This document shows, in pieces, positions 1 through 64,000 of a stretch of 64,000 nt of DNA; the stretch's first letter is position 1; every line of letters begins with the position of its first letter. The DNA comes from Tetradesmus obliquus. Taxonomy: Eukaryota > Chlorophyta > Chlorophyceae > Sphaeropleales > Scenedesmaceae. Position numbers and translations under genes: made by a program. Below the pieces are notes generated by a model, which worked only from the letters and a program-made list of their open reading frames with translations, did not search any database and was not told where the DNA came from. The stretch is taken from NCBI GenBank assembly GCA_030272155.1, contig CP126194.1, forward strand, positions 868,001-932,000, written 5' to 3'.

Positions 1-302
1 AGCAAGGAGAGCAGCAGGATGCCGTACAGCCACCAGCCCTGCTGGACTGCTCCGCCTTTCTGCACCACCCCTGCGTACTCTCCGATGCAGCATCGGTTTG
101 CAGGCTGCTGTGCACTAGCAAGGCAGTCGCTGCTGCTGTAGCAACACACCTGGCAGGCCAGCTGCGCCTGCAGTATGCTGCTGCACACTCGCAGCTCACA
201 GAGTGCTTAGAGCTGTGGCTGTATAGGAACTCGGGTATGGTGCGGTCCCTGGACATCAGCTGCACCTGCAGGTGAGGCTGAAGGGTGGAGGGAGGGAGCT
301 GG

Positions 303-346
<44 letters not shown>

Positions 347-435
347 TGCATGCAGACCAGAAGGATGCATGCATGAACATGCATGTGTGCTGCCTGCGCC
401 TGCAATTGAGGTTGAGGAGTGGAGTGCGCGAGTTT

Positions 436-506
<71 letters not shown>

Positions 507-2313
507 TGGGTGCTGCCAGCAGCTGGTGCTCCATGCATCCATAGCATCATGCAGGATGTGGTGCAGCACGGCAGGGTCCTTTTAGAGCCTAACTGGTGCT
601 TTGCTGGTGCTGGCCTTGGTGCTGTTGTTGAACAAGCAGCTGACTCTCCACAAGCAGCGCTTTATGACCTCATAACGTGCCTCAGCGTCCAGTAGCACAG
701 CAGAGGGTGCTATGGCCAGTTCGCGAGTCTGGTGAAGAGCATGACATACTGCTGCCTCATAACACTGGCTGCCTTACAACCTGCCGTGAGCTGCACCAGC
801 TGCTGCGAGGTCACACTTTTAACCATATAGCCCTCTGGGGAATTTATGGCTGCAAACCATTGACTTTTTACACACTTTGCGCCCCCTGCCCTGCAGTGAG
901 CTGCACCAGCTGCTGCAGCTGGCCACCTTGCTGGACGAGCACAGCACCGCAGTCAGCAGCCTCGACCTGAGCTTTGAGCTGTGGCACAACACGCAAGTTG
1001 CTGAACTGCTCAGCAGCCTCATCGCGCAGCACGGCTCCAAGCTAGCAGGGTTAGGTATTGACTTCAGGGCCTGTGCTGCTGACCTGTCGGGCGGCCTGCG
1101 GGCTGGCAGCATTGAGGCAGCAGCAGCAGCAGAGGAGATGCTGGCGGAGGCGCTGCAGCAGGCCGGCGCGGATGCAGCACAAGGTGAGGGGGTGGATCAC
1201 TGGCAGGCAGTGGGGAAGGGGCGTTGCAGCACGATGCAGCAGAAGCAGCGCTCGGCGTAACAGTTGTGCTTTCAGGGGGAGAGGGTGTGGTGTGTTGTGC
1301 AGAGTGTGGTGGTTTGTGTGATGCCACCAACATGCTCTCTGGCTGCCAGCCTACATTCATCCAATCCAATCACAGGTCGTGCATGTGCATCTGATTGTGC
1401 ACACACACAGCAACAAACCCTTCCGTGTTGTGCTGGGTTCACTTCCTGCCACATCAACATCACACTGCTGCTGCTGCTGCCGCCTGCCTGCGTGCCCTGC
1501 AGGCCTGCAGCTGCGCTCATTCAGCAGCACCACACGCAGCGGGGGCCCGCTGCTGCAGCAGCTGCCAGCCGCCAGCCTCAGCAGCCTGCAGCTGCTGGCG
1601 CTGGACATTGCAGAGGATGAGGCAGCAGAGCTACAGCCTGTGGCTGCTGCACTGAGGAGGCTCACAGGTGACTAGGCATCCACATGTTGAAGAGTGCATA
1701 AGAGTAGCTGTTCAAAAACGTCTTTGTGTGGCTCACTGTTGCCTCCCATGCCTGTTTGTGCATGCCAGCCAGGCTGCGAGGCTCCAGCTTGAATGATTGC
1801 AACAGAGGCCTGAGCACACACATGACGCCCACTTCGGTCGAATGTTTACATCTGCTTTACATGCTAAGAACTCCGCAAATTCCTTGTTAACATGGTACGC
1901 TCAACCAAGTAACGTGCACTTAGGCTTACTGCTGCCTGTCTTGCCTTCCTGACTGCAGGGCTGCAGTCGCTGCGCATCACCACCTGCTATGGAGCCGTAG
2001 ACAGCTGCCTGCCAGCCCTTTCAAGCCTGCATCACCTCACCTCTCTGCAGCTGGACTGCCTGCGGCAGCAGCAGCTGCTGCGGCACCTTCCTAGCAGCCT
2101 ACAGCAGCTGGCGCTGAACTACGTCCCATGGGATGATGAGGATGAGGCGTTGGAAATGTCATTTGACATGTTACATTTGTCAGAGCTGTGCAGTTTGAAC
2201 CTGCAGGCAGAGTACCATCACCTCACCATTGCAGCTGGCAGCAGGCTTCCTGCAAGCCTCACAGCACTGACTGCTCCTAACGTTGGCTACAGCAGTGCAG
2301 GCAGTGCGGCAGA

Positions 2314-2347
<34 letters not shown>

Positions 2348-5032: not shown

Positions 5033-7835
5033 TGTATCATATGACTTGATCTGACGTGCCACAGCAAGCACACTCAGTCAAGGCTTGACTGAAGGACACC
5101 AGCGTCTACCTGCCTGGCTATAGGTAGCCAAGCACGCACTGTCACTTCAGACCAGCAAATCAACATCTTCAACTATACCTGCGCTCACCTTGCTGCAGGC
5201 GCACGCGGCAGCGCAGCCGTTAGCAGGGTCCTTGAAGCAGCCTCCATGCGGCCCGCAGTCAGCCGCAGGTGTACCATATGACATGAAGCCAGCATGCCAC
5301 TGGCAGTAGATACGATCAAAGTACCAGTTAAAAGCCCGCCTAGGTAGCAAAGCAGGCACCGTCACTTACGCCCACAAGCCAGACAAAAAATAGCAGCTGC
5401 GGCTCACCTCGCTGCAGGCGCATGCGGCTGCGCAGTTGTTAGCAGGGTCCTCAAAGCAGCCTCCATGCAGCCCACAGTCAGCCGCAGGTGTGCCATATGA
5501 CATGAAGCCAATACTTCACAGCAAGCACGCTCACCCAAAGTACACAAAGTAGCACATACCTGCTTAGGGCGCAAAGCACCCGCTTTAACCCAAAGCCACC
5601 GTATCATCCTTCAAATCAGCATGCTGCGCTCACCTCGCTGCACGCGCACGCGGCTGCGCAGCCGCTAGTCGGATCTTCAAAGCAGCCTCCATGCGGCCCA
5701 CAATCATAGCCGTAACACGGCCCTGGGTAAGCTGCCTTCAGTGCATCAATCTCTTCCTGCAGCTGTGCTGTGGTGAGTGCTTCATCCCACCACTTCATTT
5801 CCCTCAAATCAATGTTGGCCAGCTCTGCTGAGTCAGCACCACCCCATGTGGATTTCCGATGTAACTGTACTGAGTGGTGTAATCGGCAGGGCTGGTGCGG
5901 ATCTGCGTGGTGTCCCAGCCGCCTTGGTCATTGATGCGGTTGATCACTGTGGTGTAACTTGTCAGTGCCGTGGCGCTTGTGGTCAGCGCAATTATGTGCC
6001 AGGTGCCGTTAATACCCAACAGGTTCATGCCAGATTGGGTGTGTGCATTCCATTGCCATCCGTAGGTGGCAAGGTACTGCCGCTCAATGCTGCCTGTGCG
6101 CATGAACGACATGGCATGTATCTCATATTGTGTAGCAACCCCGATGATCTCGTTGAAGTCGAACAGCCGCTCCCGTCTCCGATGCGGTCCTCGGAATTTG
6201 ACATAGCCGACAAACGCAAAACCCGGGTTGGCTGCACTCGCGCCATGCCAGTCAACTGAGCCAAGGCTGAAATAGCCGGCGTTGTCACCGCCATCACCGG
6301 CACCCAGTGATACCCAAGGAGCTCCACATACCGTCTTGCGCAGCACAGGAATACCAGTGTCACCTGCTGTTGCCTGTGGCACTTTGTCTGCTGCGCTGCC
6401 AATGTTTGGCCACTGTGCCACGCTGTCGCCTGCCAGGACTCCTCGGGCAGACAGTGTGGACACGCTGAGGTGAATGTAGGGTTTTGGGTTGTTCCCTGCA
6501 AATGAAGCAGGCAGGTTTCAGCAAGACACGGCATTGTGAGTCAAACAAACAGTTGGGGCATTGTCCTGGTAAGTGGGTGGGCAAGGCTCAGAGAGTGATT
6601 ACACGCCGAGGTGGATGTACGGCTTGGGCCGGTCTCCTATAGAAGCAGGCAGGCAGGGTTCAGCAAGATACGGCTTTGTGAGTCAAATGCACAGTTGGGG
6701 CATTGTCCTGCCGAGTGGGTGGGCAAGGCTCAGAGAGTGATGACACGCTGAGGTGGATGTACGGCTTGGGCAGTTCCCTGCAAAGCAGGCAGGCAGGGTT
6801 CAGCAAGATTGTGAGTCAAGCACACAGCTGGGGCATTGTCCTGGTAAGTGGGTGGGCAAGGCTCAGAGAGTGATTACACGCCGAGGTGGATGTACGGCTT
6901 GGGCCGGTCTCCTATAGAAGCAGGCAGGCAGGGTTCAGCAAGATACGGCTTTGTGAGTCAAATGCACAGTTGGGGCAGTGTCCTGCCGAGTGGGTAGGCA
7001 AGGCTCAGAGAGTGATGACACGCTGAGGTGGATGTACGGCTTGGGTAGTTCCCTGCAAAGCAGGCAGGCAGGGTTCAGCAAGATTGTGAGTCAAGCACAC
7101 AGCTGGGGCATTGTCCTGCAAAGTGGGTGGGCAAGCTGCAGAGAGTGATGACAAGCTGAGGTGGATGTACGGCTTGTGCTGGTCCCTGCAAATGAGGCAG
7201 GTAGGGTTCAGCAAGATACGGCATTGTGAGTCAAACAAACAGTTGGGGCAGTGTCCTGAGAATTGGGTGGGCAAGGCTCAGAGAGTGATGACACTGCGAG
7301 GTGGATGAACGGCTTGGGCCAGTTGCCTGCAGAGTAGCAAGGCAGCGGCAGCAATATGAAACTGAACATGAGCACACAGTCAGCTCCACAACCGTGTAGT
7401 CTGCAGGCAGAGCCGGCGCACCAGCTGAAACACGCACGCAGCCCGTCGCCAGTACATACATTCACAACTTCAAGTTAATTAGTGGTGAACGGCTGTAGCA
7501 TTTCACAGCGGCCAAGCAACGCCAGGCACAATGCAACAGTTCAGAATTTGTGGGAAATGTGAACATTCTTGGTCTGGATGTCCACTGCACTTGCAACACC
7601 ACCATGCACACACCATTGTCAGGACTGGGGCTGGGGCTGGGTTGTGGGCTGGGGCTGGGTTGCGGGCTGGGGCTGGGGCTGGGGCTGGGGCTGGGGCTGG
7701 GGCTGGGGCTGGGGCTGTTGCTAGGGTTGGGGCTGGGGCTGGGACTGGGGCTTTGCGTTGCTGGAGGTGCAGGTGAAGGTGAGGGTGATGGCTTCATGGA
7801 GGGAGAGGAAGAGGGAGAGGGCCTGCAGGAGGCGT

Positions 7836-15712: not shown

Positions 15713-18700
15713 TCAATTCTGCACTTTCATGGCGCTGCTCGCATGGCCCAGCGCCGCCACCGTCAGCCCGCCATCCTCACCCTGCTGCTGCTGCTGCTGC
15801 TGCCCCCAGGGCACAGCAGCTCCCACAGCCGCCAGCACCTCCTCCAGCAGCAGCAGGCTGCTGCGGCCCAACATGCAGCTGCCGGCACGGCCCACTGCAG
15901 CAGTCATCTGGTCACGCACCTGCACGCACATGTGCATGTACATGTGCAGCCACAGCAGCAGCGTCGAGTGAGAACAGCTGCTGAATGCAGTCGCTTGAGG
16001 AGAAGGCACTGGGCATAACACTAAGCTGAGACACTCATGCAACCAAGGCTAAGGTTGCACAACTGATCTTGTTCATCAGCTTCTGCTGCCAAGTGGACTA
16101 GCCTGCATTCCTAAGAGTGAAATGCTCCTCTGTTCACCTGGACTGAACCTGACACATGTACAGCTCCTTGTTATTGCCAGCCTGCATGAGCCCAGCCTTG
16201 AGGCCAGGTGATGAAAAAAATAATTAAAAGCTCACCTGCGGCACGCTCAAGATGGCCTGCACCTCCACGCCAAACGCTGCCGCCAGCCCTGCGGCCGCGC
16301 CCCGCACACCCTCCAGCACCTCCAGCAGCAAACTGCCGTACTTGTAGGCCAGCACGGCAGCAGCAGGCGGGGGCAACACGCTCCATTCGCGGCTGCCTGC
16401 GCTGCCGCCCATGATGCACACCAGGCGCACAAACATGCAGCGCAGCAGGCCGTGCAGCTGCGGCGCAGGCACCTGCAGGGACGGGTGGTGGCATGCAGGG
16501 CGATCCAGAGATGTGCGTGCTGTGTGATGATGATGATGATTATGATGGTGATGGTCTGGTGACGGTGATGATGGTGATGGTCTGGTGACGGTGATGACTT
16601 AGTGATGGTGCTAGCTGCTTCTGTGTAAGCACACCAACTGGCAGCTCATGAGCAGCAGAAGCAGCTGCTATGCATGTTGGTCTGGAAAGCAATGGCGGCG
16701 GCTGCCATCAGCAGCAGCGCCCTACACAGTCAACCCACCTGCCGTATCACCTCCATAACCAGGCCGCCCCCCGCTGCTGCTGCTGCCGCCGCGCCCGCCG
16801 CCTCCTCCTGCTCACACATGCTGCTCAGCTCCAGCAGCACGCCCACCAAATGATCCAGCACCCAGCTGTCAGCCCCTGCCTGAGCCCACCACAACAAATC
16901 CTCCACACCACCTGGGATGAGGCCACACTGCTGCCCAGCCTGGCCAGCTTGACCTTGCTGCTGCTGCTGCTGGCTGCAGCCTGGCAGGCGCAGGGTGAGG
17001 AGTGTGGCCAGCAGCTGCTGCGTGGCGTCGCGGAAGCTCCAGGGGCTGATGAGGGCCAGGCTGGCTGGGCAGGGCCCAGGCTCCAGCGCCTGTGGGATGG
17101 GCGGCACAGGAAGACAGAGTGAAAGTCAAGAGCAAAGTGCCGCATGCATGGCCATGAGAAAGGGAGGAAGCTCCAGGAACTGGCGAGGGCCAGACTGGCT
17201 GGGCAGGGCCCGGGTTCCAGCGCCTGGCCGCAGTGATGTGAGCATCGTAGAGTATGGCAGAGAGAAAAGCAGAGGGTGACAACGGTGGCGAGCAGGTTTG
17301 CCGGGCCAGCAAGCGTGCTGAGAGCGCCAGATACGCAACGTCTTGAGCTGACCGCAGCAGCTGCAATCTCCATCGCTGCAGGCCACCACCTGCCGCATGA
17401 CCATGACCGCAGCTGCCTCATTGATATGCATTGGGCATCTGCACCGCCTCTTGCTCAGTGGCGTCACGCACTTGGACACCACACCCCGCACTGTGCTCGC
17501 TGCCGAACATGCTCATGCCTCCTGTGTTCGGGCAACATGAAAGGCAAGCTTACCTTGCCAGACAGCCAGTTGCTCCTGCTGCTGCAACCCTCCGTGAAGC
17601 CCAGCTGCAGCTGCAGCCAGTACAGCAGCAGCTGCAGCTTGCGCCCCGCCAGCTCAGCAGCCAGCCGCCCAGCCAGCCGCTCCCAGCGCAGCACCACAGT
17701 GGCCTCAGCCATGGTGCTGCTGCTGCTGCTGCCATCTGAGTCGTCGTTATCGCTGTCGGATAGGTTGTCGTTGTTGCCCGGGGTGTGCCCTGCGCCTAGC
17801 AGGTGGTTTGACTGGCCCTGCAACCATGCACCAGGCAAAAGCCGCAACTGGTGTCGACACACTTCTGTCAAGCAACTTGTGTTGAATTGCGCTGTGACGG
17901 AAAGGAATGCATATGATAGCAATGAGATATCGTTATTGTATGCGCACCTTGTCGCAGACGCTGCCCCTGCTGCTGTCCTGCAGCATCCTCCTCGCACTGC
18001 CAATGAAGGGGTACACCTGGGCCAGGTCTGCCAGGGGTGACAGGTGCAGTGGATCTGCATGGTACGTCAGGCCCATGGACGCCTCCTGCAGCGACTTGCT
18101 GCTGTTGCTGCTGCCTGCTTGTGCTGATGCCTGGCTGTGCCGCTCGTGGATCCATACAGCGGCGTTGAGCGCAGACCTACAAGCACCACCGCGAACGGCA
18201 TGAAATCGAAAGTAATGTTATTGTTTCTGTCACTGTGAGCCCCGCTGCTCCTCAGAATCCCCCATTCCCTGCTGCACTGTGCAAGCTTGTTGCAACCTCC
18301 TGAAAGCTGCTTGTATAGTAAATGCAGCATTCATATCATTGAACGGCTCAAGATGCAGCCTTTGCAAACCTGCTACTCTCCTGAAGCACGCCCTGCTGTA
18401 CCCGGTGAGCCGCAGCAGCAGGCAGGATCTGCCACACTCCGCATTCACTGCAACTGCATCTGCTACGATCTGCCACTACGGCTGTCCCACAACACCACAA
18501 AAACACATCTGCAAACATAAACCCCACCAGTAGCAGACCCTGCTGGGGCCGGTGAGCCCCAGCCGCCGCAGCAGCCGTCCCTCTGCAGTGCGCCACGCTC
18601 ACTGCAGCTGCCGCTGCTCTGCGCTGCCGCTACAGCCAGTCCTCCACCAATTGCGTTCACTCTTTATCTTTCTGGTCTCAGACCATGCGCTCATCTTGTT

Positions 18701-30705: not shown

Positions 30706-30745
<40 letters not shown>

Positions 30746-32461: not shown

Positions 32462-32497
<36 letters not shown>

Positions 32498-32629: not shown

Positions 32630-32671
<42 letters not shown>

Positions 32672-32805
32672 GCACCCCACCTGAGGTACAGGTAGAAGGC
32701 CGCCACGAAGAAGAAGTACCACTGCTGCGCGCGGAAGCCCGGCACCTTGCGGTCCTTCTGAGCCACGCGCGCCATCATGAACAGCTCCTTGACAATCAGG
32801 TACTG

Positions 32806-32838
<33 letters not shown>

Positions 32839-36499: not shown

Positions 36500-36533
<34 letters not shown>

Positions 36534-36540
36534 CAACTGC
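33952..36540. other. Intergenic region, no supported gene
   Basis: Lies between the start of the CDP-DAG synthase gene and the end of the cyclase gene. A 269-codon frame at 34748-35557 (+) is compositionally repetitive, lacks domains and is not accepted as a gene. Confidence 0.45.
35448..35605. repeat. AGTACT/CAGTAC-rich imperfect repeat
   Basis: At least ten copies of cagtac or agtact, often as CAGCAGTACT, in 160 bp. AGTACT is self-complementary, so small hairpins are possible. Confidence 0.8.
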
Positions 36541-36596
36541 CTAACCACTGACATCATGAGCGCCTGCTGCATCATTGCGGCTGGCGCCATTCGACC

Positions 36597-36639
<43 letters not shown>

Positions 36640-36745
36640 TCCCTGCTGCAGCTTCAGCTGCTGCTTTGGCGCAGCAGGTGCCCCTCCTGCTTGTGACAAC
36701 CCCTTGCCAGAGCCATTGGCCCTGACTGCTGTGGGCCTTGCAGCT

Positions 36746-36783
<38 letters not shown>

Positions 36784-39401: not shown

Positions 39402-39434
<33 letters not shown>

Positions 39435-39557
39435 CCCACCAGAAGATCCTGTCGGCCAGCTCAGCGCTGGTCACGATGAGCCCGCCATGCGCAGCAGCAT
39501 CCATTATGCGCGCCGCCAGGTTGACGGACGGCCCGTGGTAGTCCGCGCGGCCCTGCA

Positions 39558-39623
<66 letters not shown>

Positions 39624-45600: not shown

Positions 45601-48600
45601 CTGCTGCTGCTGCTGATGCTGATGCTGATGCTGATGCCCTTCGCTGTGCATCAGCGGCAGGTTCGCGGACTTCACATCCCGTGCCGGCCGCCGCAGCATG
45701 GTGATCGGCGCCGACGCCGCCGACCCCGCTGCTGCTGCTGCCGCTGCTGCTGCCTGCACAGATCCCCCGGAGCCGCCAGAGCCCAGCACTACTGCAGACA
45801 TGCTGTGGATCCAGGATGACATGCCTTGGCTGCTGCTGTTGCGCCTGTGGCCATCACCGCCAAGCGCTGTGCTTGATCCGGAGGTCCTGCGGACGTCTCC
45901 GGGGGCGCCGTCGCGCAGGTTGATGCGTGACCCAGAGTTGCGCTTATAGCCGGCGACGCTGGGCCAGTTGGTCTTGGCCAGACACTGCTGCACCTGCAGC
46001 ACGGCAGCACAGCGAGAGTGCACATGAGCACATGTTGCAGGGATGTTTTGAAACAAGCGTGGAGGGTGCGTGACTTGGAGTTGCGCTTATAGCCAGCAAC
46101 GCTGGGCCAGTTGGTCTTGGCCAGGCACTGCTGCACCTGCAGCAGGAAACAGCAGTGGTAAACAGTTGCAGGGATATGTTGTGACAAGCATGAAGGGTCA
46201 ACCATCGGCAGCGGCTGTAGCTGGCGACGCTGGCCAGTCGGTCTTGGCCAGGCACTGCTGCACCTGCAGCACGGCAGCACAGTGAGAGTGCACATGTTGC
46301 AGGGATGTTTGGTAACAAGCATGAAGGGTGCGTGCTCGGAGTTGCGCTTATAGCTGGCAACGCTGGGCCAGTTGGTCTCGGCCAGGCACTGCTGCACCTG
46401 CATTCAATCAAGGTTTTTAGGATACAGTGTTACCTCATGCCGGACTGTGAAACCAAGGGCAGCGGCTGCAGCCGCCGGCCAGGCATTGCTGCACCTGCAG
46501 CAGGACCACCAGGGAGAAAAACACCATTGTGTCTCTGGCAGTCCACCGCCGTGTGCAGGTACAGTATGCAGTACGGCATGCAGTACAGTATGCCCTGTAT
46601 GCGCCGTACAGCATGCAGTACAAGATGTCGTACAACATGCAGCACAAACCCCTGTATCGCTCACCTGCAGGCAACATGCCACCGCGTCCACTGGCGTATG
46701 GCACGCCCCATCCCAGCCCCCCTGCTCCACCAACCACACAACCAATGCATACATTACATCACCCCGCCCACCCACGCAACTGCAGGCAAAATGACACCGC
46801 GTCTACCGCCAAGCGAAACACCACGCTCCAGCTGTCACCCTCCTGCAGTTCCGGCACAACAACAGTACAACAACCAGCATACAACGCAGCCCAGGAATCC
46901 TAAACCACTCACCTGCAGGCAAAATGCTACGGCATCTACTGCAGTGTGGAAGGCCACGCTCCAGCTGTCCCCCTCCTGCTCAATCACGTGGCCCGCATGC
47001 GCAGCAGCGGCGCGCCGCAGCAGTGCATTGTGGATGCCCAGGAAGCGCGTGGCCAGGGGTGCGTTAATCGTCATCAGCTCTGTTGGCGGCGGCAGCAGCA
47101 GCAGCAGCAGCACATGTTGGATGCCCAGGAAGCGCGTTGCCAGGGGGCATTGATCGTCATCAGCTCTGTTGGCGGCAGCAGCAGCAGCAGCAGCGCGTTG
47201 TGCACACACCATCACTGGCAGCTTGCCAGGACACTCCTCGCCCAAACCCAGCACTAGGACGCAACAGCCACGACCATGTTGGCAGAAACTGCAGCAAACC
47301 CATTGCCGACGCAGCCACTGCGGCAAAAATGCCCATGACTCACCCGAGCAGCACTCGATATCCGTCACAACAATGGTAGCAGGCCCTCCACTGCGCACGC
47401 CCTTCTTCCTATTCTCCGCGAGCTCCTTCTCGCGCAGCCAGCGCGGCCGCAGCTGCACTTTCATGCGCAGCCACACAAACAGGCCCTTGGCCGCCAGCAC
47501 CCCAACACAACAACCACGACCAAAACCGCACCATACGAATGATGCCGCCGCCGCTGCAGCAAATATTCGGCCGCCTTCACTCACCCGAGAAGCACTCAAT
47601 GTCTGTCACCACAATGGTAGCAGGCCCCCCACTGGGCACGCCCTTCTTCCTGTTCTCCGCGAGCTCCTTCTCCCGCTGCCAGCGCGGCCGCAGCTGCACC
47701 GTCATGCACAGCCACACAAACAACCCCAGCGCCGCCAGCACCCCAACACAACAACCACGACCATAACCGCAGCCTATGAATGATGCCGCCGCCGCTGCAG
47801 CAGATATATGGCCGCCTTCACTCACCCGAAAAGCACTCGATATCGGTCACAACAATCGTGGCAGGCCCTCCACTGGGCACGCCCTTCTTCCTGTTCTCCG
47901 CGAGCTCCTTCTCGCGCTGCCAGCGCGGCCGCAGCTGCACCGTCATGCGCAGCCACACAAACAGGCCCACCGCCGCCAGCAGCGCCACCCCGATCACGCA
48001 CAGCAGCGCGGTCACAGGCGTCACCCAGGCTGCTGGCGCGTCTGGCATGGCCTCGCAGGTAAGCTTGGTGCCGTTGTTGAGCCAGACTGCACGGTGACCC
48101 TGCAGAAAGGAGGTTTCGGAGCAGCAGGCACAAGGTTGCAGATGTTACAGATGTGTGTGCTGCAGTGTGTGAGCAGCAGGATGATAGGCCAACAGCCACA
48201 CAAACAAGAACACCGCCGCCAGCAGCGCCACGCCGATCACGCACAGCAGCGCAGTCACGGGCGTCACCCAGGCTGCTGGGGCGCCTGGCATGGCCTCGCA
48301 GGTGAGGCGGGTGCCGTTGTTCAACCAGACTGCACGGAAGCCCTGCAGGATGTGTACGCAGCAGTGTGTGAGCAGCAAAATGTCAGGCTTATGCGTTTGG
48401 CAGGGGCTCGAGAGTGAGGCGGGTGTCTTGTTGAGCCACACTGCACGGAAGCCCTGCAGAGCAGCAGCAGCGCAGTGTGCAGGTGATGATGCAGTTGTGC
48501 GCGGTCACGGGTGTCACCCAGGCTGCTGGCGCGTCTGGCATGGCCTCACAGGTAAGCTTGGTGCCGCTGTTGAGCCACACGGCACGGTGACCCTGCAGAC

Positions 48601-49849
48601 AGGAGATGATGGAGCAGCAGGCACATGGGTACTAACCATGTAGTACAGATGTTGCAGTTGTTGACGCAGCATTGTTGAGCCACAAAGCTAAGGGCCCCTC
48701 CAGGTTGGGGTAACGTAACGCCTGTTCACCTCCCTGTCTCTCTTCCTGTGGTGTCCAGCCCTCACCTCGAGGCGCCTGGTGCGTACCTGAGATCTATCTT
48801 TGCTGCAAACCAAGCAAGCTGCGCTCCACATCAGGCACTGAAACAGGTGGCGAACCAGACACCACACTGGTCCACTCCCCTGCCTTGCCCTCACCTCCAG
48901 ATGTACTGCTGTGACATATTATAGCTGCAGAGCAACCTGCCCTCCTGTTCACAGAATTTACGCGTGTCCATCTCCCCCTGCCTTGCCCTCAAAGTACATC
49001 AGAAACTCAAACAAATACTGAAACACAAACCCCGCCGCCCCGCCGCCCCGCCGCCCTGCCTTGCCTTCTAAAACAATGGGTGCTCACCTCAAGGCATCTG
49101 CAGGGGCGGAACTGGTAGTAGCTCGGGTCGATGTCCCACGTCTGCTGCGCAGCTGCCACCTCAGCAATGTTGCCCGCCTGCTCGCCCAGCTGGCTGGCAC
49201 TGTCCCCCTAACACGCCGCAAGCCGCACCTCAAGCTCTGCTAGACATCAGAACTCAAACAAATACCAAAACAGAAAACCGCGCCGCTCCGCCGCCCTGCC
49301 TTGCCTTCATAAAACACAATGCGTGCTCACCTCAAGGCACCTGCAGGGCCGGAACTGGTAATAGCTGGGATCAATGTCCCACGTCTGCTGCGCAGCCGCC
49401 ACCTCAGCAATGTTGCCCGCCTGCTCGCCCAGCTGGCTGGCACTGTCCCCCTCACACGCCGCTACAGCCTCATCCCGCGGCCGGCGCAGGATCACAGGGC
49501 AGGCCATGTTGCTGTTGTCCGTGCGCGGCAGTGTGACCTTGCTGAAGAACAGGAAGCATGGCAGTAGCGCACTGTCATCACACTGCTGTGGATCACCATC
49601 TGCTTTTGAATTTGAATTCGAATCCACTGCAGTAGCGTTGGCTGTAGCGTTGGCTGCAGCGTCAGCTGTGCTGCTGGGTGGTGCGGCCGCAGCTGCTGCA
49701 TCTTCAGTTGTGCCCAGGCAGCTCATGCTGCTGTTGCGCAAGTCCACCTCGTGCAAGTTCTGCAGCACACCCATCTGTGGAGGGATGGCCCCTGTGAGGC
49801 TGTTGGTGCCCAGCAGCACGTCAGTCAGGCCAAACGTGAGCCTGCAAGC

Positions 49850-49892
<43 letters not shown>

Positions 49893-50212
49893 GTGCATTG
49901 GCTCAGTCAATGCGGCACACCCATCTGTGGGGGAATAGCCCCTGTGAGGCTGTTGGTGCCCAGCAGCACGTCAGTCAGGCCAAACGTGAGCCTGCAAGCA
50001 GCAGCAGCAGCAGGTGTGTTGGCTGAGTGAATGCGGCGTTGTGGAAAGCAGTGGCAGTTGAATGCGCAAAGTGGCAAAACAATTAGCAGGGCGCTACATG
50101 CAGCATGCAGCCGCTCCTGTATGCAGGCGCGACACAAATGGCTCAAAGCCAGCCCAAGCGCCTCAACACTCCAGCCCTGCCACATCTGTTGCCTCACCCG
50201 ATGGCTGATGCT

Positions 50213-50249
<37 letters not shown>

Positions 50250-53200
50250 CACCGTCGTACTCACCCAATCGCCGAACTGATGCTGCCAGTCAAGTTGTTG
50301 CGGCTCAAGTCCAGGCTGCGCAGCTGCGGCAGGAACCAAAGGTTCTCATCGATGATGCCCGTGAGCTGGTTGTTGGCCAAGTAGAGCTCCGTGAGGAACG
50401 TCATCAGCGTCACTGCGCGCTCAATGCTGCCGCTGAACCTGCAGCAGCATCAGCAGCAGCAGCAGCAGCAGGTGTGCGGCACCAGCAGCCAGAGCAATAG
50501 CAGCACCAAGAGTTTTAGTGTGGTGCTTGTATACAGTGCACACAAACCCATGCAGTGCCACACCCACAGCAACCAATGACACGCATGGAGTGCAACGAGG
50601 TGAGTTTAGGACGCCGGAAACATGGCATGGTGCACGCTAGCTGCGTTTTGAGACTCCGGCTGTTACAGCGCTGACCTGTTGTTGGCCAGGTTGAGGTATC
50701 CCAGCACGGGCAGGCTGTACAGCGCGGGCGTGAGCGGCCCGTGGAAGTCGTTGCTGCGCACATGACCTACCGCATGCACGCGCAGCCACAGCCACAGCGC
50801 CAAGCCACGCGCATGCAATCACCCAGCCACACCCACAGCAGCCCAACCAGTCGCAGTCAGTCGCCTGTTGTTGGCCCGGATGGGGCAGCCAGACACGCAG
50901 CCAGGCACACACACCCACAGCAGCCCACCCACACTTACACACCTGTTGTTGGCCAGGTTGAGGTATCCCAGCACGGGCAGGCTGTACAGCCCGTACACAC
51001 AGCAACCCACGCATGCAAGCCCAGCCACAACCACAGCAGCCCAACCACACTCACAAGCACGCCGGCGCCACCCACAGCAGCCCAGCCGCACCTGTGCACT
51101 TGAACAGCCACCCGATTTTGGCCAGGTTGAGGTGGCCAGGCACACAAGCACGCACAACACGCACGCACAGACGAACACTCATGCACGCGTAGCATAACCT
51201 ACAGCAACCCACCCACAGCAACACCCACACTCACACAAGCACCTGTTGTTGGCCAGGTTGAGGTGTCCCAGCACCGGCAGGCTGTACAGCTGCTGCAGGT
51301 TGGCAGGTACAACACCAATAAACAGCAGCACATCCACACCCATCCACCCACCCACCTGTTGTTGGCCAGGTTGAGGTATCCCAGCACGGGCAGGCTGTAC
51401 AGCGCGGGCGTGAGCGGCCCGTGGAAGTCGTTGCTGCTGGCGTCCAGCACCGCCAGCTGCGGCCAGCTCATGTTGGCGGGCATGGGGCCGCTGAACCTGC
51501 GGCGGCAGCAGCAGCGGCAGCAGCAGTAACTTCCAATCCTTGATGGTTCACGGCAGCACTGTCAGAGTCTAACTGAACTTTCTGGTTGCTTTGCAGAAGG
51601 TTTGCATGCCGCATGCACGCCAGCTGCAACTGTGCAAAGGCGTTGCAGCGCACCGCAATAGGCCAAAGTACTGCGCGGTTGCTGCCGGCTACAATGCAGC
51701 CGCCCTTCCAATGTGCACGCAACATACTTGTTGCAAGCTGGTGCCCCGGCACAAGCACCAGCACCAGCACAGCCGTAAGAACCAGCGACAACCTTGCCTA
51801 CATACGCTGCTGCTGAGTTCCAGCTGCCTACCGCATGGACGCTACATTATCCAACAGGCACATCAGACTCCTGACAGCGTGCTACACTTGGCAAATCCCT
51901 GCCTTTGCAGTAAACTAAGATGCTGCTGCTGCTGCTGCTATTGCTGCTGCTGCTGCTGCTGCCGCTCACCTGTTGTTGCTGATGTCCAGCTGCGTGAGCT
52001 CCGTGCACTGCGTGAGGTATTGCGGCACGCCGCCCAGCCTGTTGCTGCGCAGCTTCAGCACCTTCAGCTTGTTGCGGCTGCACAACGCTGCAGGAATGCT
52101 GCCTGTCAGCGCATTCGTCTGCACATTCAGCACTGCCAGCTGCGGCAGCTGAGATAGTGCCTCAGGCAGAGTGCCAGTTAAGCCCTGCGAGCCGTCTGCA
52201 TTATCGCCTGCATTGGCTCCGAGGTTTAGGACTTGTAAAGCTGTGAGCTCGCCTAGCCAACTGGGGATGGGCCCTGACAGGAAGTTGGTGCCCAGGCCTA
52301 GGGTTTGCAGGCGCTTGAGGGAGCGCAGCGCAGCTGGGATGGTGCCGTTGAGCCAGTTGTTGGCTGCGCAGGACATACAGAGAGGCGGAGCAGCAGCAGC
52401 AGCAGCAGCAACAGGCGCGTGTGAAGGTTGATTACAGCAGTGTTTGAGAGCACAGATGCTAGTACGGGCGTGAAGGCACTGTTGGCGTTGCGCCATACGC
52501 CCCCCTGTCCTGATATGCTGCTGCTGCTGCCGCTGCTGGTCTCCTTGTGCAGCCATTCACTGCAGCTTGCCGGCCCTCTGACCAGGATCAGCCTACTTGA
52601 CACCAACACCAAATGCTGCTGCACGACAAACACCCCACAGCTGCTGTTACATTGCTTGTGCTGCAACTGCTGACACAACTCTGCCGCAACTGCTGACACA
52701 AGCTGGTGGGTTTGATGTAGGTTTGAACTGCTTTGCTGCTGGTGCCGCTGCCACAAAGCGCCGCAGCATGCTTGCAACAGCCGTTGCTGGCAACGTCACG
52801 GTGCATTGCTGGCAGGGGCGCTCGCACAGCTCAGCAACATCGCCGCGGCACGCGATGCTGGCCTCTGCTACTAACACGGCTGCCATCAGCAACAGCAGCA
52901 AAGCCCCCTGTTGCTACTGCTACTGCTACTGCTACAGCTACTGCTGCTGCTGCTGCTGCTGCCGGGCACTCACAGAGGTCCAGCACCACCAGATTCGTCA
53001 TCAGGCCCCATTCTGGCGTCATGCTGCCGCTCAGGTCGTTGCCCTGCAGGTTTAGCCGCGTCAAACCACACGCGTGCAGCTGCAGCAGGTTGTTGATGAT
53101 GCCAGGGCTGCCCAGCGTGCCATTCAGGCCGTTTACTTGCACCTTGAGCTCGCTGACACTGTGCACGGCGCTGCACTGCTTTCCTGCAAGGGATGTGGAG

Positions 53201-53760
53201 TCGCAGCAGCTGACGCCGTTCCACGAGCAGTAGCTCGGCGCGCGCGCAGGCGCAGCCAGCAGCTGCTGGCAGCTGCGGGTTGCTGTCAGCTCCCAGCCCT
53301 GCTTGTTTGCCCATGGCTTGGTGTCCCTGCAGCGGCAACGGCATTGGTAAACAACAGGTACAACCTGAGCAGGCTGCTGCAGCTCCAGGCCATCTACAAC
53401 ACAGGCAGCGCCATGCACAAAACATGCACAGCTGTATGGCATCATGCTGCTGTGCTGAGGCATCACAAAGCTGCTGCAGAGACAAGGTGGATGCATAGAT
53501 TCCTCTCACCATGGCTTGTCAGGGTTGAAGGTGCTGTTGTAAAAGGCAGCGAGCGCACTGCAGGTTGCCAGCTGACAAGCAGCAGTGCATACGCCTTGCT
53601 GCAGCCCTGGGCATGTGCTGGGTGCTGCTGCAGCAGCCCTGGGGGCACCAGCAGCACGCTGCGTGCTGCCCAGGCACAGCAGCAGCAGCAGCAGCCAGTA
53701 GGCACCCCATACCGCCGCATCACGACAGGCAGCCCTGCCAATGCCTTCAAGCATGATCAT
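36541..53760 (-). CDS. LRR receptor-type class III nucleotidyl cyclase with two cyclase domains
   Basis: Seventeen exons, all phases consistent, 6312 nt, 2103 residues: 53510-53760, 52974-53326, 51970-52363, 51356-51496, 50265-50438, 49331-49841, 47826-48099, 46913-47079, 44853-45993, 44173-44353, 42906-43258, 41593-41762, 40933-41067, 40561-40722, 39440-39552, 38484-39070 and 36541-37745. Order: signal peptide (YWLLLLLLCLG), LRR N-cap (YCSWNGVSCC), about 12 LRRs (residues ~170-470), linker, one membrane span (~636-658), cyclase domain 1 (~690-1240) and cyclase domain 2 (~1335-1740), then an S/Q/A-rich tail. Domain 1 has both metal aspartates (TDIE, D694; EQEGDSW, D737) but a poor catalytic Asn/Arg site. 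Domain 2 lacks both (FAAVEGG; REQEGG) but has ADYHGPSVNLAAR with N1480 and R1484. Expected to convert ATP or GTP to a cyclic nucleotide upon extracellular sensing. Most introns contain exon-edge echoes. Confidence 0.9.
36597..36638 (-). repeat. CAG run encoding poly-Gln near the cyclase C-terminus
   Basis: CTG on the plus strand, in frame as Gln in exon 17. A second run at 36741-36780 encodes poly-Ala. Confidence 0.85.
37858..37902 (-). repeat. Acceptor-edge echo of cyclase exon 17
   Basis: Repeats the acceptor region of the exon starting at 37745 (gcagcatcatgcctgcgggg followed by a GGCA-rich tract), about 120 bp upstream in gene sense. Confidence 0.85.
38236..38336 (-). repeat. Donor-edge echo of cyclase exon 16
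   Basis: Repeats about 95 bp of the end of the exon at 38484 (GGMKPSSSRRDLLKELLQR then AGTGAGTGCC), about 240 bp into the next intron. Confidence 0.9.
39556..39621 (-). repeat. (CTG)n tract before cyclase exon 15
   Basis: About 66 bp of CAG on the plus strand (CTG in sense) abut the CTGCAG acceptor at 39553; one CAA interruption. Confidence 0.9.
39819..40505 (-). repeat. Six donor-edge echoes of cyclase exon 14
   Basis: Copies begin at about 39821, 39946, 40068, 40191, 40315 and 40436 (period 121-125 bp). Each repeats the last codons of the exon (HSILPDHL or variants) and a GTGAGCAT-like donor, then a shared intron part (ctgcagaca(g)ctgagg...). The intact exon end is at 40561. Confidence 0.93.
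41155..41200 (-). repeat. Acceptor-edge echo of cyclase exon 13
   Basis: Repeats cacgctccggcag...cagcagcgccacc from the start of the exon at 41067, but the CTGCAG acceptor is lost. Confidence 0.65.
41383..41548 (-). repeat. Two donor-edge echoes of cyclase exon 12
   Basis: Copies at 41485-41545 and 41385-41440 repeat the exon end (DAGLLVHAVIGRLMQ plus donor). The first is nearly intact; the second retains LLVHTVIR. Confidence 0.85.
41820..42400 (-). repeat. Five acceptor-edge echoes of cyclase exon 12
   Basis: Copies at about 41823, 41951, 42095, 42208 and 42328 (period ~113-144 bp) repeat CTGCAG plus AGVADLSSQQQSP of the exon at 41762. Four keep a CAG acceptor and the same first codons, so they are strong decoy acceptors. 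Confidence 0.93.
42670..42862 (-). repeat. Two donor-edge echoes of cyclase exon 11
   Basis: Copies at 42675-42735 and 42802-42862 repeat the exon end (FREPTQQTRVGYFCAPG plus GTGCGGCA). Confidence 0.9.
43310..43445 (-). repeat. Acceptor-edge echo of cyclase exon 11
   Basis: About 125 bp repeat the start of the exon at 43258 (CLRGIVGKPREAA... to GEYYQPS), with a one-base loss in the gcggggcgg region that shifts the frame. A shorter scrap of the same sequence lies at 43497-43515. Confidence 0.88.
43616..44052 (-). repeat. Three donor-edge echoes of cyclase exon 10
   Basis: Copies at about 43920-44050, 43680-43805 and 43618-43665 repeat up to 130 bp of the end of the exon at 44173 (WLTELGTVDHKGYNDKLLAS... 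CLFNLLG plus donor). The first two are ~240 bp apart and nearly intact. Confidence 0.9.
44398..44482 (-). repeat. Acceptor-edge echo of cyclase exon 10
   Basis: Repeats CTGCAG plus AVSDMADGGQVLLDAC of the exon starting at 44353, 117 bp upstream in gene sense; in frame and with an intact acceptor. Confidence 0.9.
46070..46503 (-). repeat. Four acceptor-edge echoes of cyclase exon 9
   Basis: Copies ending near 46140, 46270, 46402 and 46500 repeat CTGCAG plus VQQCLAKTNWPSVAGYKRNS of the exon at 45993 (period ~130 bp). Three retain the acceptor and phase. Confidence 0.92.
46655..46850 (-). repeat. Two donor-edge echoes of cyclase exon 8
   Basis: Copies at about 46778-46850 and 46660-46720 repeat the exon end at 46913 (DSWSVAFHTAVDAVAFCLQ). 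Both have diverged; the first lost the donor GT, the second keeps GTGAGC. Confidence 0.8.
47103..47190 (-). repeat. Acceptor-edge echo of cyclase exon 8
   Basis: Repeats the acceptor AACAG and ELMTINAPLATRFLGI of the exon at 47079, 76 bp upstream in gene sense. Confidence 0.88.
47340..47740 (-). repeat. Two long donor-edge echoes of cyclase exon 7
   Basis: Copies at 47342-47505 and 47583-47740 repeat ~150 bp of the exon end at 47826: membrane-proximal residues and the start of cyclase domain 1 (ATIVVTDIECFSG) with donor GTGAGT. Both remain almost fully open, so the first metal-binding motif exists three times in a row in the DNA. Confidence 0.93.
48190..48605 (-). repeat. Three acceptor-edge echoes of cyclase exon 7
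   Basis: Copies at about 48190-48345, 48425-48455 and 48505-48595 repeat CTGCAG plus the exon start at 48099 (AVWLNNGTKLTCEAMPDAPA) and, in the longest, the membrane span. With the donor side included, this exon has five echoes. Confidence 0.92.
49085..49215 (-). repeat. Donor-edge echo of cyclase exon 6
   Basis: About 120 bp repeat the exon end at 49331 (SASQLGEQAGNIAEVAAAQQ... CRCLE plus GTGAGC). Confidence 0.92.
49910..50003 (-). repeat. Acceptor-edge echo of cyclase exon 6
   Basis: About 90 bp repeat TTGCAG plus LTFGLTDVLLGTNSLTGAIP of the exon at 49841, preceded in sense by a CTG run. Confidence 0.93.
50676..51302 (-). repeat. Five donor-edge echoes of cyclase exon 4 (one LRR)
   Basis: Copies at about 51240-51290, 51110-51140, 50940-50990, 50868-50890 and 50676-50768 repeat the LRR end YSLPVLGYLNLANNR plus donor of the exon at 51356. 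The most distal copy is the longest (SNDFHGPLTPALYSLPVL...). Confidence 0.9.
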
Positions 53761-60612: not shown

Positions 60613-61345
60613 TCACTGCAGCTCGCGCTGGCGCGTCAGCCACAGCACCACTGGCAGCTGGAACATGATGAACACGAGCACAGTCGTGACAAAGGTCTCC
60701 TGCACGGACAGACAGCAGCAGCACCACAGCGCGGCAGTGAAAACCCTAGCATGCCCAGGCACTAGCTGGAGTGCACCAAGATGCATATTTGCGTTGGCGC
60801 ATGTCGAAAGCGCGGAACTTGACAGACCTGCCTGCAAACCAACCAAAGCAAGCACGCATAGACATATAGAGGTGTAACGTTGTGCGCCGACTGTCCCCAC
60901 ACAGAGCGCAGCCACTGGCAGCATCAGTCAGAAGCTCAGGCCGCATCAATCTATCAGCAGTCCACGCAGGCTTAGCCGTACTCACCAGCGGGAAGTGGAA
61001 GTACTTGGCATCAATCACAAGCGAACGCCATACTACGCTGCAAACAGCATTCACTGCAGGCCAACCTAATGCCACCCTGATGCCAGCCGCACTCACCAGT
61101 GGGAAGTGGAAGTACTTGGCCGTGTAGTACATGTCCGCTGCCGTGAACAGGTACAGGAACAGCGCAGCCACAAACAGCAGCGTCAGCGCGCCCTCGCGCC
61201 ACGACACCGCATCACTGCTGCCGCCGCTGCCGCTGCGGATGGTGCGCAGCATGTCTGACATGAGGCAGACCAGCTCCGCGTGCAGGCAGATGAGCATGGT
61301 GGCTGCCAGGAAGATGTGGTCCGACACGATGTGGAACTCCAGCAG

Positions 61346-61390
<45 letters not shown>

Positions 61391-61544
61391 GTAGGGACAG
61401 TAAGCATGGTGGCTGCCAGCAAGATGTGATCAGATGTGGTCAGACACGGCGGCGGCGGCAGCAGCTGGAGCAGTAGCAGTGCAGGCAGATGAGCATGGTG
61501 GCTGCCAGGAAGATGTGGTCCGACACGATGTGGAACTCCAGCAG

Positions 61545-61595
<51 letters not shown>

Positions 61596-61686
61596 GACAG
61601 CAGCAGCAGCAGTGCAGGCAGATGAGCATGGTGGCTGCCAGGAAGATGTGGTCCGACACGATGTGGAACTCCAACAACCTGGCAGC

Positions 61687-61723
<37 letters not shown>

Positions 61724-61809
61724 CAGCAGCAGTGGCAGCAGCATTGCAGGCAGATGAGCATGGTGGCTGCCAGGAAGATGTGGTCCGACACGATGTGGAA
61801 CTCCAACAA

Positions 61810-61878
<69 letters not shown>

Positions 61879-62701
61879 GCCAGACGCAGCCCGTGAGTGA
61901 AATGAAACTGGCAAATGTATGACATATCAGGCAGGCAATACGAAGCGGTCGAGCAGCAGGTGTGCAGAAGCTGTTTTGCAGTACCTGCTTGGCACCTCAT
62001 GCATGCATGCATTTGATGGCACCGAGCACCCAACAGCTGCATCGCTGATCACACATCAGCAGCAGCGCTCACCTGTTCTGCAGCAGGAAGTAGTGCGTCA
62101 AATACACCGCCAGCCTCGCCACAGCCATGCTGCTGTACACCGCCATGCAACCCAGCGCCAGACTCCCCAGCTTCACTGCCCGCCACTGCTTCTGCTGCTG
62201 CTGCTGCTGCACCACACCCCTGCCGGCCTCTCCAGACTGCAGCTGGTGTGCTAGCCAGTGCACACCTGCGCGCGCTGCAAGCACCGCAAAGGGCACCAGT
62301 GGCCCTGCAGGCCGCAGCAGGCCCCGGTCAAACCACAGCATCACGTGGTAGACCTTTTGACCATGTGGCAGTCCCTCATACACCCACATGCCCATTAAAA
62401 TGGCCAGCCACCACACTACAAGTGGTGCCAGCAGCAGCGCCTGAAAGGCTGTGTGGGACTCCAGTACCAGTGGGTCGCTGTAGCTGCTGAGGGCCCAGCT
62501 GCTGCTGCTGCTGCTGTTGCGGGTAGAGGTGGTGGTGGGGCCAGATGGCTTGCTGCTGTTGAGTGGGAAGGTCTCCTCAAGTTCAAAGGCTGCTTCTGCT
62601 GCTTGGCAGCTGCCGTGGCTGCCTGCCATGTTTGCTGCAGGGCTGCCTTGCTGCTGCTGCTTGCTTGCACGTGTGCCGCGGTTGGCGACGGCCGTAGCCA
62701 T
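60613..62701 (-). CDS. Six-span membrane protein of unknown function
   Basis: Three phase-consistent exons: 62073-62701, 61097-61346 and 60613-60699; 321 residues. A polar Ser/Gln-rich N-terminus (~90 residues) is followed by hydrophobic segments: ALLLAPLVVWWLAILMGM; VPFAVLAARAGVHWLA (weaker); SLALGCMAVYSSMAVARLAV; FLAATMLICLHAELVCLM; LTLLFVAALFLYLF; and TVLVFIMFQLPVVLWL. The block HIVSDHIFLAATMLICLHAE at the start of exon 2 holds charged or polar residues (H, D, H, E) inside a membrane segment and may be functional. The protein ends in a basic tail (TRQRELQ). I do not recognise the family. Exon 2 has echoes on both sides. Confidence 0.65.
60974..61015 (-). repeat. Donor-edge echo of membrane-protein exon 2
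   Basis: Repeats the exon end at 61097 (AKYFHFPL plus GTGAGT) about 113 bp into the next intron. Confidence 0.85.
61350..61876 (-). repeat. Four acceptor-edge echoes of membrane-protein exon 2, separated by (CTG)n
   Basis: Copies at about 61400-61455 (partial), 61483-61553, 61613-61688 and 61745-61821 repeat CCAG plus LLEFHIVSDHIFLAATMLIC of the exon at 61346. CTG runs (sense) of up to ~60 bp separate them. Three copies are nearly identical to the exon and in phase for 24 codons. Confidence 0.95.
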
Positions 62702-63017
62702 CTAAACACGAGGTAACTGAAGACCAAGCAACCCTGTAAGCTACTGCAGAGCCAGAAGTGCTGCTGTGTTGCTCAGCAGCACTCGAATGTCACCGCGCTG
62801 CTGCTGCGTCTGCTGAACTGCAGCTGCCTGAGGAGCTTATCGCTGATATGCCAAGTTTTAAGCGCACCAGTGCTGACACTGCACTCCAAAATCACACTGG
62901 TGCTGGTTCCTCGCTGCTGTTACTACTCTGCGGGCTCAGTGGCCTGCTGCTGCACTTGTGATATGTGCAGTTGAAGCAGGGCACGTCATAAGCAGAGCAA
63001 GATGCCCTTGCCTGCTT
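62702..63017. other. Spacer upstream of the six-span protein gene
   Basis: Holds a plus-strand frame (62758-62961) ending in a hydrophobic tail. It lacks a clear start or partners and probably is promoter and 3' flank of the two minus-strand genes. Confidence 0.35.
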
Positions 63018-63595
63018 TCAATGCTTTGAAAGCAAGAAGTACAGCAGGCCCAATAGTAGGAAGCAGTTGACCAGAATGATTGGCACGATGTACCTGCAGG
63101 AGCGAAAGCAAGGCAGCAGCAGGGCATCATACAGGTGCAGCTGCTTGCATGCGCATCTGATGTAGCAGCCGGTTGGTGCTGAAGTATGGCTGTTGCTTTC
63201 GCGCCAGGTGCCACTTCATTGCGTTTACGACAAAAGACTAGTTGTTGCCTGCTGCACTCAGCCAAGCACCTGCCCTACAGTAGCTGCTGATCCGGCACCT
63301 GTGTAGCTCTGCACCCGTGCCGAGCATAGCTACCATCCACAAACTCACTGTGCGTATCAGATGAACTCGCTCCAGCAGTGCCGAAGCTGTATGCGCAGCG
63401 ATCCGGGTCGATGCCTGCTCGACTGTTCACCAGCTGTGGGGATCAGCAGAGGAGCTGCAGCGGGGTCCTCCACGTCCTCAGGTATATTGATAGTGGTCAC
63501 GCTGTGCATGCGATCGCTAGACTGGAAGGTGAAGGCCTTGCAGGTGCACAGAGCGAGCAGTGGTTCGTCAGAGTTCAGCCCTAGAAGTTCTAGTG
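63018..63595 (-). CDS. C-terminal exons of an unidentified membrane protein
   Basis: Three exons join in phase: a first one ending at 63431 (start uncertain, ~63595), 63299-63347, and 63018-63093 with stop TGA. Together they encode a soluble segment (LELLGLNSDEPLLALCTC, FQSSDRMHSVTTINIP, PAAAPLLIPTA) and a C-terminal hydrophobic region (SLWMVAMLGTG, then YIVPIILVNCFLLLGLLYFL) ending SKH. The gene probably continues beyond the right edge. It looks like a single- or two-span type protein with a very short tail. Family not recognised. Confidence 0.45.
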
Positions 63596-64000
63596 TAACA
63601 GCAGCTTATAAGCATGCAGCTACACCTCTGCATATGCATGCACACTGGCTTTCACACAACATTTTCTGCCAGCTGGCAACACGTGCTCTCATCATATCCT
63701 GACAACCCAGGGCAGAGGGTTCTATGGCATTACCAACAGGCACTCTCACAGTGCCCCAGGCTCAGGTGCCACACTGTCGCCCTCATTCCCAGCGACCAAC
63801 AACTGTTTACCCGAAATGTCTATGTCCCGAGCATCCCAGCCGCTGGAAAAAGTGATGCATGCGCACATGGGCAAGTGAATGCCTGAACCATCTGTCAAAT
63901 GTACCATGCTGCAAACGAGCCAGCATTGTTGACGTGTCTTCCATCACACGCAGATGGCGTAGCATGATTATGCACGCTGGCAGGAACAACAAGCGCGCTG
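63596..64000. other. Right-edge region, no supported feature
   Basis: May contain an intron or upstream exons of the minus-strand membrane gene; no frame could be joined with confidence. Confidence 0.3.

What the first reader, a model, noticed from the sequence alone, without database searches (positions are those of the whole stretch)
1..64000. Exon-edge echoes: tandem copies of exon boundaries fill the introns of six genes
About 65 intronic segments repeat, head to tail, the nearest exon edge together with its splice site. Acceptor-edge copies lie only upstream of the real acceptor and donor-edge copies only downstream of the real donor, as expected if a unit spanning an exon-intron border were tandemly duplicated and only the copy continuous with the exon stayed functional. 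Units are about 45-245 bp and copy number 1-6. They occur in the LRR, LamG, C12orf56-like, CDP-DAG synthase, receptor cyclase and six-span genes. Tandem exon duplication is well known; such systematic duplication of exon borders is not something I know as a described class.
Basis: partly seen in the sequence, partly recalled or inferred. Interest (0 to 1): 0.88.

Follow-up and report, generated by a model that had tools for sequence, protein, structure and literature searches.

The report
Intron arrays of copied exon edges
In this green alga many introns have grown by repeatedly copying the neighbouring exon edge together with its splice site, so real splice sites sit beside rows of look-alike decoys that the known proteins do not use.

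Summary
The window lies in Tetradesmus obliquus. In three genes with protein-based models (42 exons, 39 introns), 24 of 78 exon edges have 48 recognisable copies ("echoes") in their own intron, 0.03 edges expected. Copies lie on the right side in 23 of 70 tests, on the wrong side in 1 of 70. Echo introns are about three times longer. Local direct repeats occur in 16 of 20 random loci; pooled over 18 loci, their mismatches show a coding-type 3-base rhythm.

Short tandem duplication across splice borders fits best. But the apparent border preference (25 of 27 families) is largely accounted for by geometry and by the exon half staying recognisable longer. Echoes are not mini-exons and not coding now: 15 of 16 indels shift the frame.

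Two results go beyond simple duplication. In 27 of 48 echoes homology stops within 12 nt of the splice site. In the 18 with continuing intron homology, 56 of 80 differences from the exon are at third codon positions, as if both copies diverged as coding alleles.

The parts
28843..33951 (-). CDP-diacylglycerol synthase gene, 10 exons, protein-supported model
   Evidence: spliced alignment of P0001; PF01148
32504..32557 (-). donor-edge echo of exon 4 (real edge 32681)
31957..32057 (-). acceptor-edge echo of exon 5 (real edge 31890)
31095..31144 (-). donor-edge echo of exon 6 (real edge 31317): 50 bp at 98%, homology ends 8 nt past the splice site
29087..29390 (-). two acceptor-edge echoes of exon 10 (real edge 29043)
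36456..53720 (-). LRR plus nucleotide-cyclase gene (OEZ86_006000), 20 exons
   Evidence: spliced alignment of P0121, translation identical to the record; four LRR Pfam families over cut-off, cyclase PF00211 just below its cut-off
50676..51290 (-). three donor-edge echoes of exon 5 (real edge 51356), one of 82 bp at 100%; two more decayed copies seen by eye
49911..49996 (-). acceptor-edge echo of exon 7 (real edge 49841)
48996..49219 (-). donor-edge echo of exon 7 (real edge 49331), intron homology continues
48193..48592 (-). three acceptor-edge echoes of exon 8 (real edge 48099); two carry residues of the other strain's exon
47344..47740 (-). two donor-edge echoes of exon 8 (real edge 47826), unit about 241 bp
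47118..47174 (-). acceptor-edge echo of exon 9 (real edge 47079)
46660..46846 (-). two donor-edge echoes of exon 9 (real edge 46913)
46067..46402 (-). three acceptor-edge echoes of exon 10 (real edge 45993)
44419..44473 (-). acceptor-edge echo of exon 11 (real edge 44353)
43615..44039 (-). three donor-edge echoes of exon 11 (real edge 44173), unit about 244 bp
43312..43426 (-). acceptor-edge echo of exon 12 (real edge 43258)
42668..42867 (-). two donor-edge echoes of exon 12 (real edge 42906)
41827..42401 (-). five acceptor-edge echoes of exon 13 (real edge 41762)
41386..41543 (-). two donor-edge echoes of exon 13 (real edge 41593)
41151..41196 (-). acceptor-edge echo of exon 14 (real edge 41067)
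39816..40460 (-). six donor-edge echoes of exon 15 (real edge 40561), unit about 122 bp
38229..38325 (-). donor-edge echo of exon 18 (real edge 38484)
   Evidence: spliced alignment of P0241, translation identical to the record; no Pfam family
18380..18577 (-). two donor-edge echoes of exon 8 (real edge 18774)
19116..19270 (-). two acceptor-edge echoes of exon 8 (real edge 18991)
17166..17226 (-). acceptor-edge echo of exon 10 (real edge 17089)
6448..7357 (-). tandem array (about 133-142 bp) of acceptor-edge copies of a predicted exon edge at 6495 (LamG-like gene, model unverified); 3 copies over threshold
5189..5480 (-). two donor-edge echoes of a predicted, unverified exon edge at 5634
61403..61808 (-). 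four acceptor-edge copies (three of 64-67 bp, one decayed of 32 bp) with CTG runs between them, predicted edge 61346 (six-span gene, model unverified)
60986..61009 (-). one donor-edge copy, predicted and unverified proximal edge 61097

Best explanation
The echoes are short-range tandem duplications (nearest spacing 87-246 bp, 13 of 24 at 100-150) whose unit happens to span an exon-intron border. The spliceosome keeps using the exon-continuous site, i.e. the outermost donor and acceptor, so the added DNA is removed with the intron and the change is tolerated. Repeated rounds build arrays and lengthen the intron. Unused copies then decay without coding constraint; the copied exon half stays recognisable longer than the intron half because its partner, the real exon, is held by selection. 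SHOWN: local origin, direction, longer introns, frameshifting decay, lack of partner splice sites, local repeats with a coding signature in random loci. INFERRED: the DNA-level mechanism (fill-in and joining at staggered breaks, or unequal exchange), and that the copied sites are ignored in the cell, since no read data were available.
For: Own-intron copies at 24 of 78 edges against 0.03 expected. No near inverted pairs in the window. Four of the 17 echo introns searched in the whole genome: echo segments matched only their own exon, though in two of the four only 40 of 210 and 40 of 174 candidates were scored. Echo introns: 17, median 746 bp, against 22 without, median 224 bp, P = 2e-5; collapsed from the edge to the farthest copy, 15 of 17 fall to 178-500 bp. 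Decay: 15 of 16 gaps are frameshifting; splice dinucleotides kept in 42 of 48, 43 expected at neutral decay of 5.6% per site. No excess of acceptors near donor-echo starts (mean rank 0.59, n=26) or donors near acceptor-echo ends (0.42, n=22). In 18 random 10-kb loci 59 of 90 local repeat families touch a predicted exon border against 32.7 +- 3.8 by shifting; mismatches pooled over 67 families show 3-base periodicity (325 against 290 +- 6.6, none of 2000 shuffles; 7 of 67 families significant singly). Known process: small tandem duplications at staggered breaks (PMC8355091, abstract and introduction read).
Against: In a tandem unit the whole spacer must be copied, yet in 27 of 48 echoes homology ends within 12 nt past the splice site. 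Exon identity hardly differs between copies that kept and lost intron homology (0.92 against 0.90, P = 0.36), although positions 1+2 are more diverged where it was lost (0.073 against 0.036, P = 0.011). Between two echoes the exon-derived part is more alike than the intron-derived part (0.870 against 0.691, 43 of 44 pairs); echoes were found by their exon half, which favours this. Changed codons are 132 synonymous and 96 not, where random change predicts about 41 and 112. Stops are 2 against 4.8 or 7.0 expected (P = 0.10 or 0.03). Among the 18 copies with intron homology 56 of 80 differences are at codon position 3, more than a neutral copy of a constrained exon should give (P = 1.5e-5 under a simple model, copies treated as independent).
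Confidence: 0.7

Rival explanations
1. Echoes are fossil alleles: copies put side by side by unequal exchange between diverged haplotypes, or overwritten by gene conversion from another copy, so that exon and echo had already diverged as coding sequence.
For: Copies with intron homology differ from the exon at codon positions 1/2/3 by 4.4/2.2/15.3%, the pattern of two coding alleles; it persists outside CpG contexts (3.5/1.6/11.7%). Two echoes of exon 8 carry residues of the other strain's exon (F537 and R547, one also G555); R547 and G555 look derived, because the outgroup has K and D. Echoes without intron homology carry the other strain's residue in 7 of 16 echo-by-site comparisons, 5 distinct sites.
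Against: Copies with intron homology, the ones with the coding pattern, carry the other strain's residue in 0 of 6 comparisons (0/6 against 7/16, P = 0.12). Differences from the compared proteins are not enriched in echo-covered codons but rarer (12 of 550 against 99 of 2460, P = 0.044, pooled with P0001). Five of the seven shared residues come from one exon.
Confidence: 0.2
2. Echoes are working alternative or mutually exclusive exon parts kept by selection.
For: Third-position excess and synonymous excess, only 2 in-frame stops, strong splice sites. The other strain's annotated protein P0122 includes one 13-residue echo-like segment.
Against: 15 of 16 gaps shift the frame. No partner splice sites beyond chance. 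The same-genome proteins omit the echoes: P0121 and P0241 match the models letter for letter; P0001 differs at 1 of 484 residues.
Confidence: 0.07
3. Assembly artefact: alleles or repeat copies falsely laid in tandem.
For: The allele-like pattern of the 18 copies with intron homology would also arise from false duplication of two haplotypes.
Against: Copies are mostly diverged (mean exon identity 0.91), in arrays of up to six. Local direct repeats occur in 16 of 20 random loci. The other strain's annotated protein, from a separate assembly, holds an echo-like piece.
Confidence: 0.04

Closest known systems
Potato RdRp intron gained by tandem genomic duplication (PMC4974935; abstract passages and the Results and Discussion section read)
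   Same: The duplicated unit spans an intron 3' end and the start of the next exon
   Different: There the second copy is used and yields a new intron and inserted exon, one event; here copies stay inside one intron, unused in the protein models, in arrays at 24 of 78 edges
Rogers-type tandem genomic duplication intron gain (passages in PMC3443670 and PMC4974935)
   Same: Tandem duplication brings extra splice sites
   Different: That duplicates an exonic AGGT segment and makes a new intron; here existing introns grow
[quoted passage not shown] 2007; seen only as a reference in PMC2586383, content recalled)
   Same: Splice borders lie in tandem arrays
   Different: There the arrays yield alternatively spliced introns; no use of the copies is shown here
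Small tandem duplications at staggered breaks (PMC8355091, abstract and introduction read)
   Same: Direct, local, head-to-tail copies
   Different: Described there as the commonest short (<100 bp) insertions in the human genome; here 59 of 90 families have spacings of 95-155 bp and some reach about 245

Membership tests
Tandem genomic duplication (mutational class) | direct, local copies; no inverted or remote copies | tested here: met
   window 95 near direct, 0 near inverted; echo segments of four echo introns matched only their own exon among the candidates scored
Tandem genomic duplication (mutational class) | whole unit copied, including the intron part | tested here: inconclusive
   18 of 48 copies continue >=21 nt into the intron, 27 of 48 stop at <=12 nt
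Rogers-type intron gain | new intron formed from duplicated exon sequence | not testable with these tools
   needs orthologous gene structures in relatives; none held
Tandem (mutually exclusive) exon duplication | copy has its own acceptor and donor | tested here: not met
   partner-site ranks 0.59 and 0.42, near chance
Introners | same element at many unrelated loci | tested here: not met
   echo segments of four of 17 echo introns found only at their own locus; in two of the four only part of the candidates was scored

The most novel reading that the evidence does not exclude
Echo arrays are a reservoir of exon-edge alleles: copies from diverged haplotypes are laid beside the working edge by unequal exchange, and array contraction or conversion can later swap an echo's edge into the coding exon, so introns store and return protein variation.
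Probability: 0.15. Interest if true: 0.85.

Novelty: new variant of a known kind. Interest (0 to 1): 0.62.

Why it matters
At 24 of 78 exon edges in three genes a real splice site has one to six similar copies beside it, and the protein models use the outermost pair. For acceptors the unused copies would be met first by a scanning or first-come machinery, so these introns are a ready-made natural test of exon definition against intron definition in a single-celled alga. By the collapse the arrays also account for much of the extra length of the 17 echo introns, a route of intron growth other than transposons. And they are a trap for gene prediction: my gene finder called echoes as exons, and the other strain's annotated protein contains an echo-like piece.

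Tried and rejected
Ab initio gene finding: a first version drifted onto CAG repeats. Later versions call echoes as exons and recover 25 of 42 verified exons exactly, so it was used only for the random-locus border test, where it can inflate 'border' counts; one search is the check without gene models. Mini-exon idea rejected. Present coding constraint in echoes rejected on the frameshifts, although stops and non-synonymous changes are fewer than random change predicts. Enrichment of protein differences in echo-covered codons not found. A border-specific mechanism is not needed after correction, but at the upper bound of detectability the shortfall of internal families would be significant (P = 0.011). 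One of the 25 border families (15393-15844) lies at the stop-codon end of P0241's last exon, not at a splice border, and one (37733-37912) has only 13 nt of exon. Dropped rows: loci L025 (two near inverted pairs, no near direct pair) and L027 (repeat-rich) left out main counts; run apart they gave 2 usable families without signal (P = 0.51). Of 90 families, 67 were usable. Literature: nine answered searches showed nothing describing such arrays in the titles and abstract starts listed; the lists are capped and subscription papers are mostly not held. PMC12571836 (found passages only) has no occurrence of 'intron' in its main text.
Full report
Where it is. The window is C4:868001-932000 of a 104.66 Mb, 17-contig genome. 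C4 has the length 7,755,718, which is also the contig length given for the T. obliquus protein OEZ86_006000, P0121. A 104.70 Mb T. obliquus assembly of 17 scaffolds is listed in PMC12571836. The species is therefore inferred with good confidence; the exact accession is an inference.

Gene models. Three proteins were aligned with splicing to the window: P0001 (10 exons), P0121 (20 exons) and P0241 (12 exons). P0121 and P0241 bear this genome's contig length and are reproduced letter for letter; P0001 differs at 1 of 484 residues. P0001 is an uninterrupted 484-residue frame from contigs of at most 3,652 bases, whereas the gene spans 5.1 kb with nine introns, so it probably comes from a transcript (inference). 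First and last exons of P0121 may be annotation guesses.

Observation. Exon-edge queries (up to 200 nt of exon only, simple repeats masked) against their own intron: 24 of 78 edges hit, 48 copies; against non-adjacent introns 1 of 2820. Orientation holds: 23 of 70 right side, 1 of 70 wrong side (one search's version of the test was invalid). Introns with echoes number 17 of 39 and are longer, median 746 against 224 bp. The genome as a whole behaves alike: 16 of 20 random 10-kb loci have near direct pairs; near inverted pairs occur in 2 of 20, L025 and L027. In the other 18 loci the smallest spacing per family is 95-155 bp in 59 of 90. In the window six of 24 nearest spacings fall at 241-246 bp, which I cannot explain.

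Is it a border phenomenon? In the three genes 25 of 27 local repeat families include an exon border, one of them at the stop-codon end of a last exon. Placing units of the observed sizes at random on the collapsed genes, and discarding those inside or swallowing an exon, gives 60% border events. Using the intron halves of the real echoes as a yardstick, a copy without an exon half would be recognised in 8 of 24 cases. Together 5.0 of 27 internal families are expected and 2 seen, P = 0.10, with 0.51 to 0.011 over the range of that 8 of 24; geometry alone would have given P = 0.00015. In random loci 59 of 90 families touch a predicted border against 32.7 +- 3.8 by shifting, but that test rests on imperfect gene calls and does not correct for ascertainment. 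Mismatches between copies have a 3-base rhythm without any gene model: 325 against 290 +- 6.6 in 67 families of the 18 loci (7 of 67 significant singly) and 128 against 110 +- 4.2 in 24 families of the window, so many repeats are exon-derived.

What the echoes are now. 22 of 26 donor echoes and 19 of 22 acceptor echoes score above the 5th percentile of real sites. Splice dinucleotides are kept in 42 of 48, close to the neutral expectation of 43; by class 18 of 18 and 24 of 30. They lack partner sites beyond chance and their indels shift the frame in 15 of 16 cases. The simplest reading is that they are neither kept nor purged by selection. Against it stand the excess of synonymous codon changes (132 to 96; about 41 to 112 expected for random change) and few stops (2; 4.8 or 7.0 expected, P = 0.10 or 0.03); part of the synonymous changes must lie on the exon's own branch.

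Two classes. Measured past the splice site, homology runs >=21 nt into the intron in 18 copies (class A) and less in 30 (class B); 27 of 48 stop at <=12 nt, about the splice consensus. Divergence from the exon at codon positions 1/2/3 is 4.4/2.2/15.3% in A and 7.3/6.4/14.4% in B; without CpG contexts 3.5/1.6/11.7 and 6.2/5.4/10.1. Class B fits a neutral copy beside an exon that changes synonymously (91 of 179 differences at position 3, P = 0.12); class A does not (56 of 80, P = 1.5e-5; copies in one array are not independent). By positions 1 and 2 class B is older (0.073 against 0.036, P = 0.011). At residues that differ between the two strains, class B echoes carry the other strain's residue in 7 of 16 echo-by-site comparisons (5 distinct sites, most in one exon) and class A in 0 of 6 (P = 0.12); the residue of the outgroup P0123 is carried in 2 of 65 and 0 of 53 comparisons where it differs. 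So most of the cyclase gene's echoes probably arose after the split from Scenedesmus sp. NREL 46B-D3, and class B may be about as old as the strain split or exchanged since (inference).

Mechanism. Best supported: repeated short tandem duplication, tolerated because splicing keeps the outer sites. The DNA step is not shown. One array (61403-61808) has CTG runs between its units (by eye), which hints at repeat-mediated joining there; the exon 6 echo of the CDP-DAG gene, for one, has no such run beside it. The class A pattern suggests that some duplications joined diverged haplotypes. Both points need the second strain's DNA.

Known relatives. The nearest published event that I saw is the potato RdRp duplication of an intron end with the following exon start (PMC4974935), which made a new intron. 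Rogers-type duplication, tandem exon duplication and introners differ as listed in the membership test. Nine answered literature searches in the held open library listed no description of such arrays; only the listed titles and abstract starts were seen.

Noticed in passing
window 11477-11636 (-): A U1 spliceosomal RNA gene (Rfam RF00003, 79.9 bits) with ATACTTACCTG at its 5' end, the usual U1 start (recalled).
   Followed up: partly
window 18668-18743: A ~75-nt dispersed element in the donor-proximal part of P0241 intron 8; 39 further places at 80-88% identity, on both strands and many contigs, with 40 of 210 candidates scored. No tRNA or Rfam match there.
   Followed up: partly
window 58779-59670 (+): About five copies of a 183-bp unit at 91%, open in one frame of 418 aa, inside the BTB/Kelch-like gene prediction (name by eye); not shown to be an exon edge.
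   Followed up: no
P0122 (other T. obliquus strain): Annotated protein contains a repeated LRR piece SLPVLGYLNLANN that matches an intronic echo here, so gene prediction seems to take up echoes.
   Followed up: partly
window 15716-53720 and random loci: Spacing of copies clusters at about 95-155 bp and, in the window, also at 241-246 bp; no reason found.
   Followed up: partly
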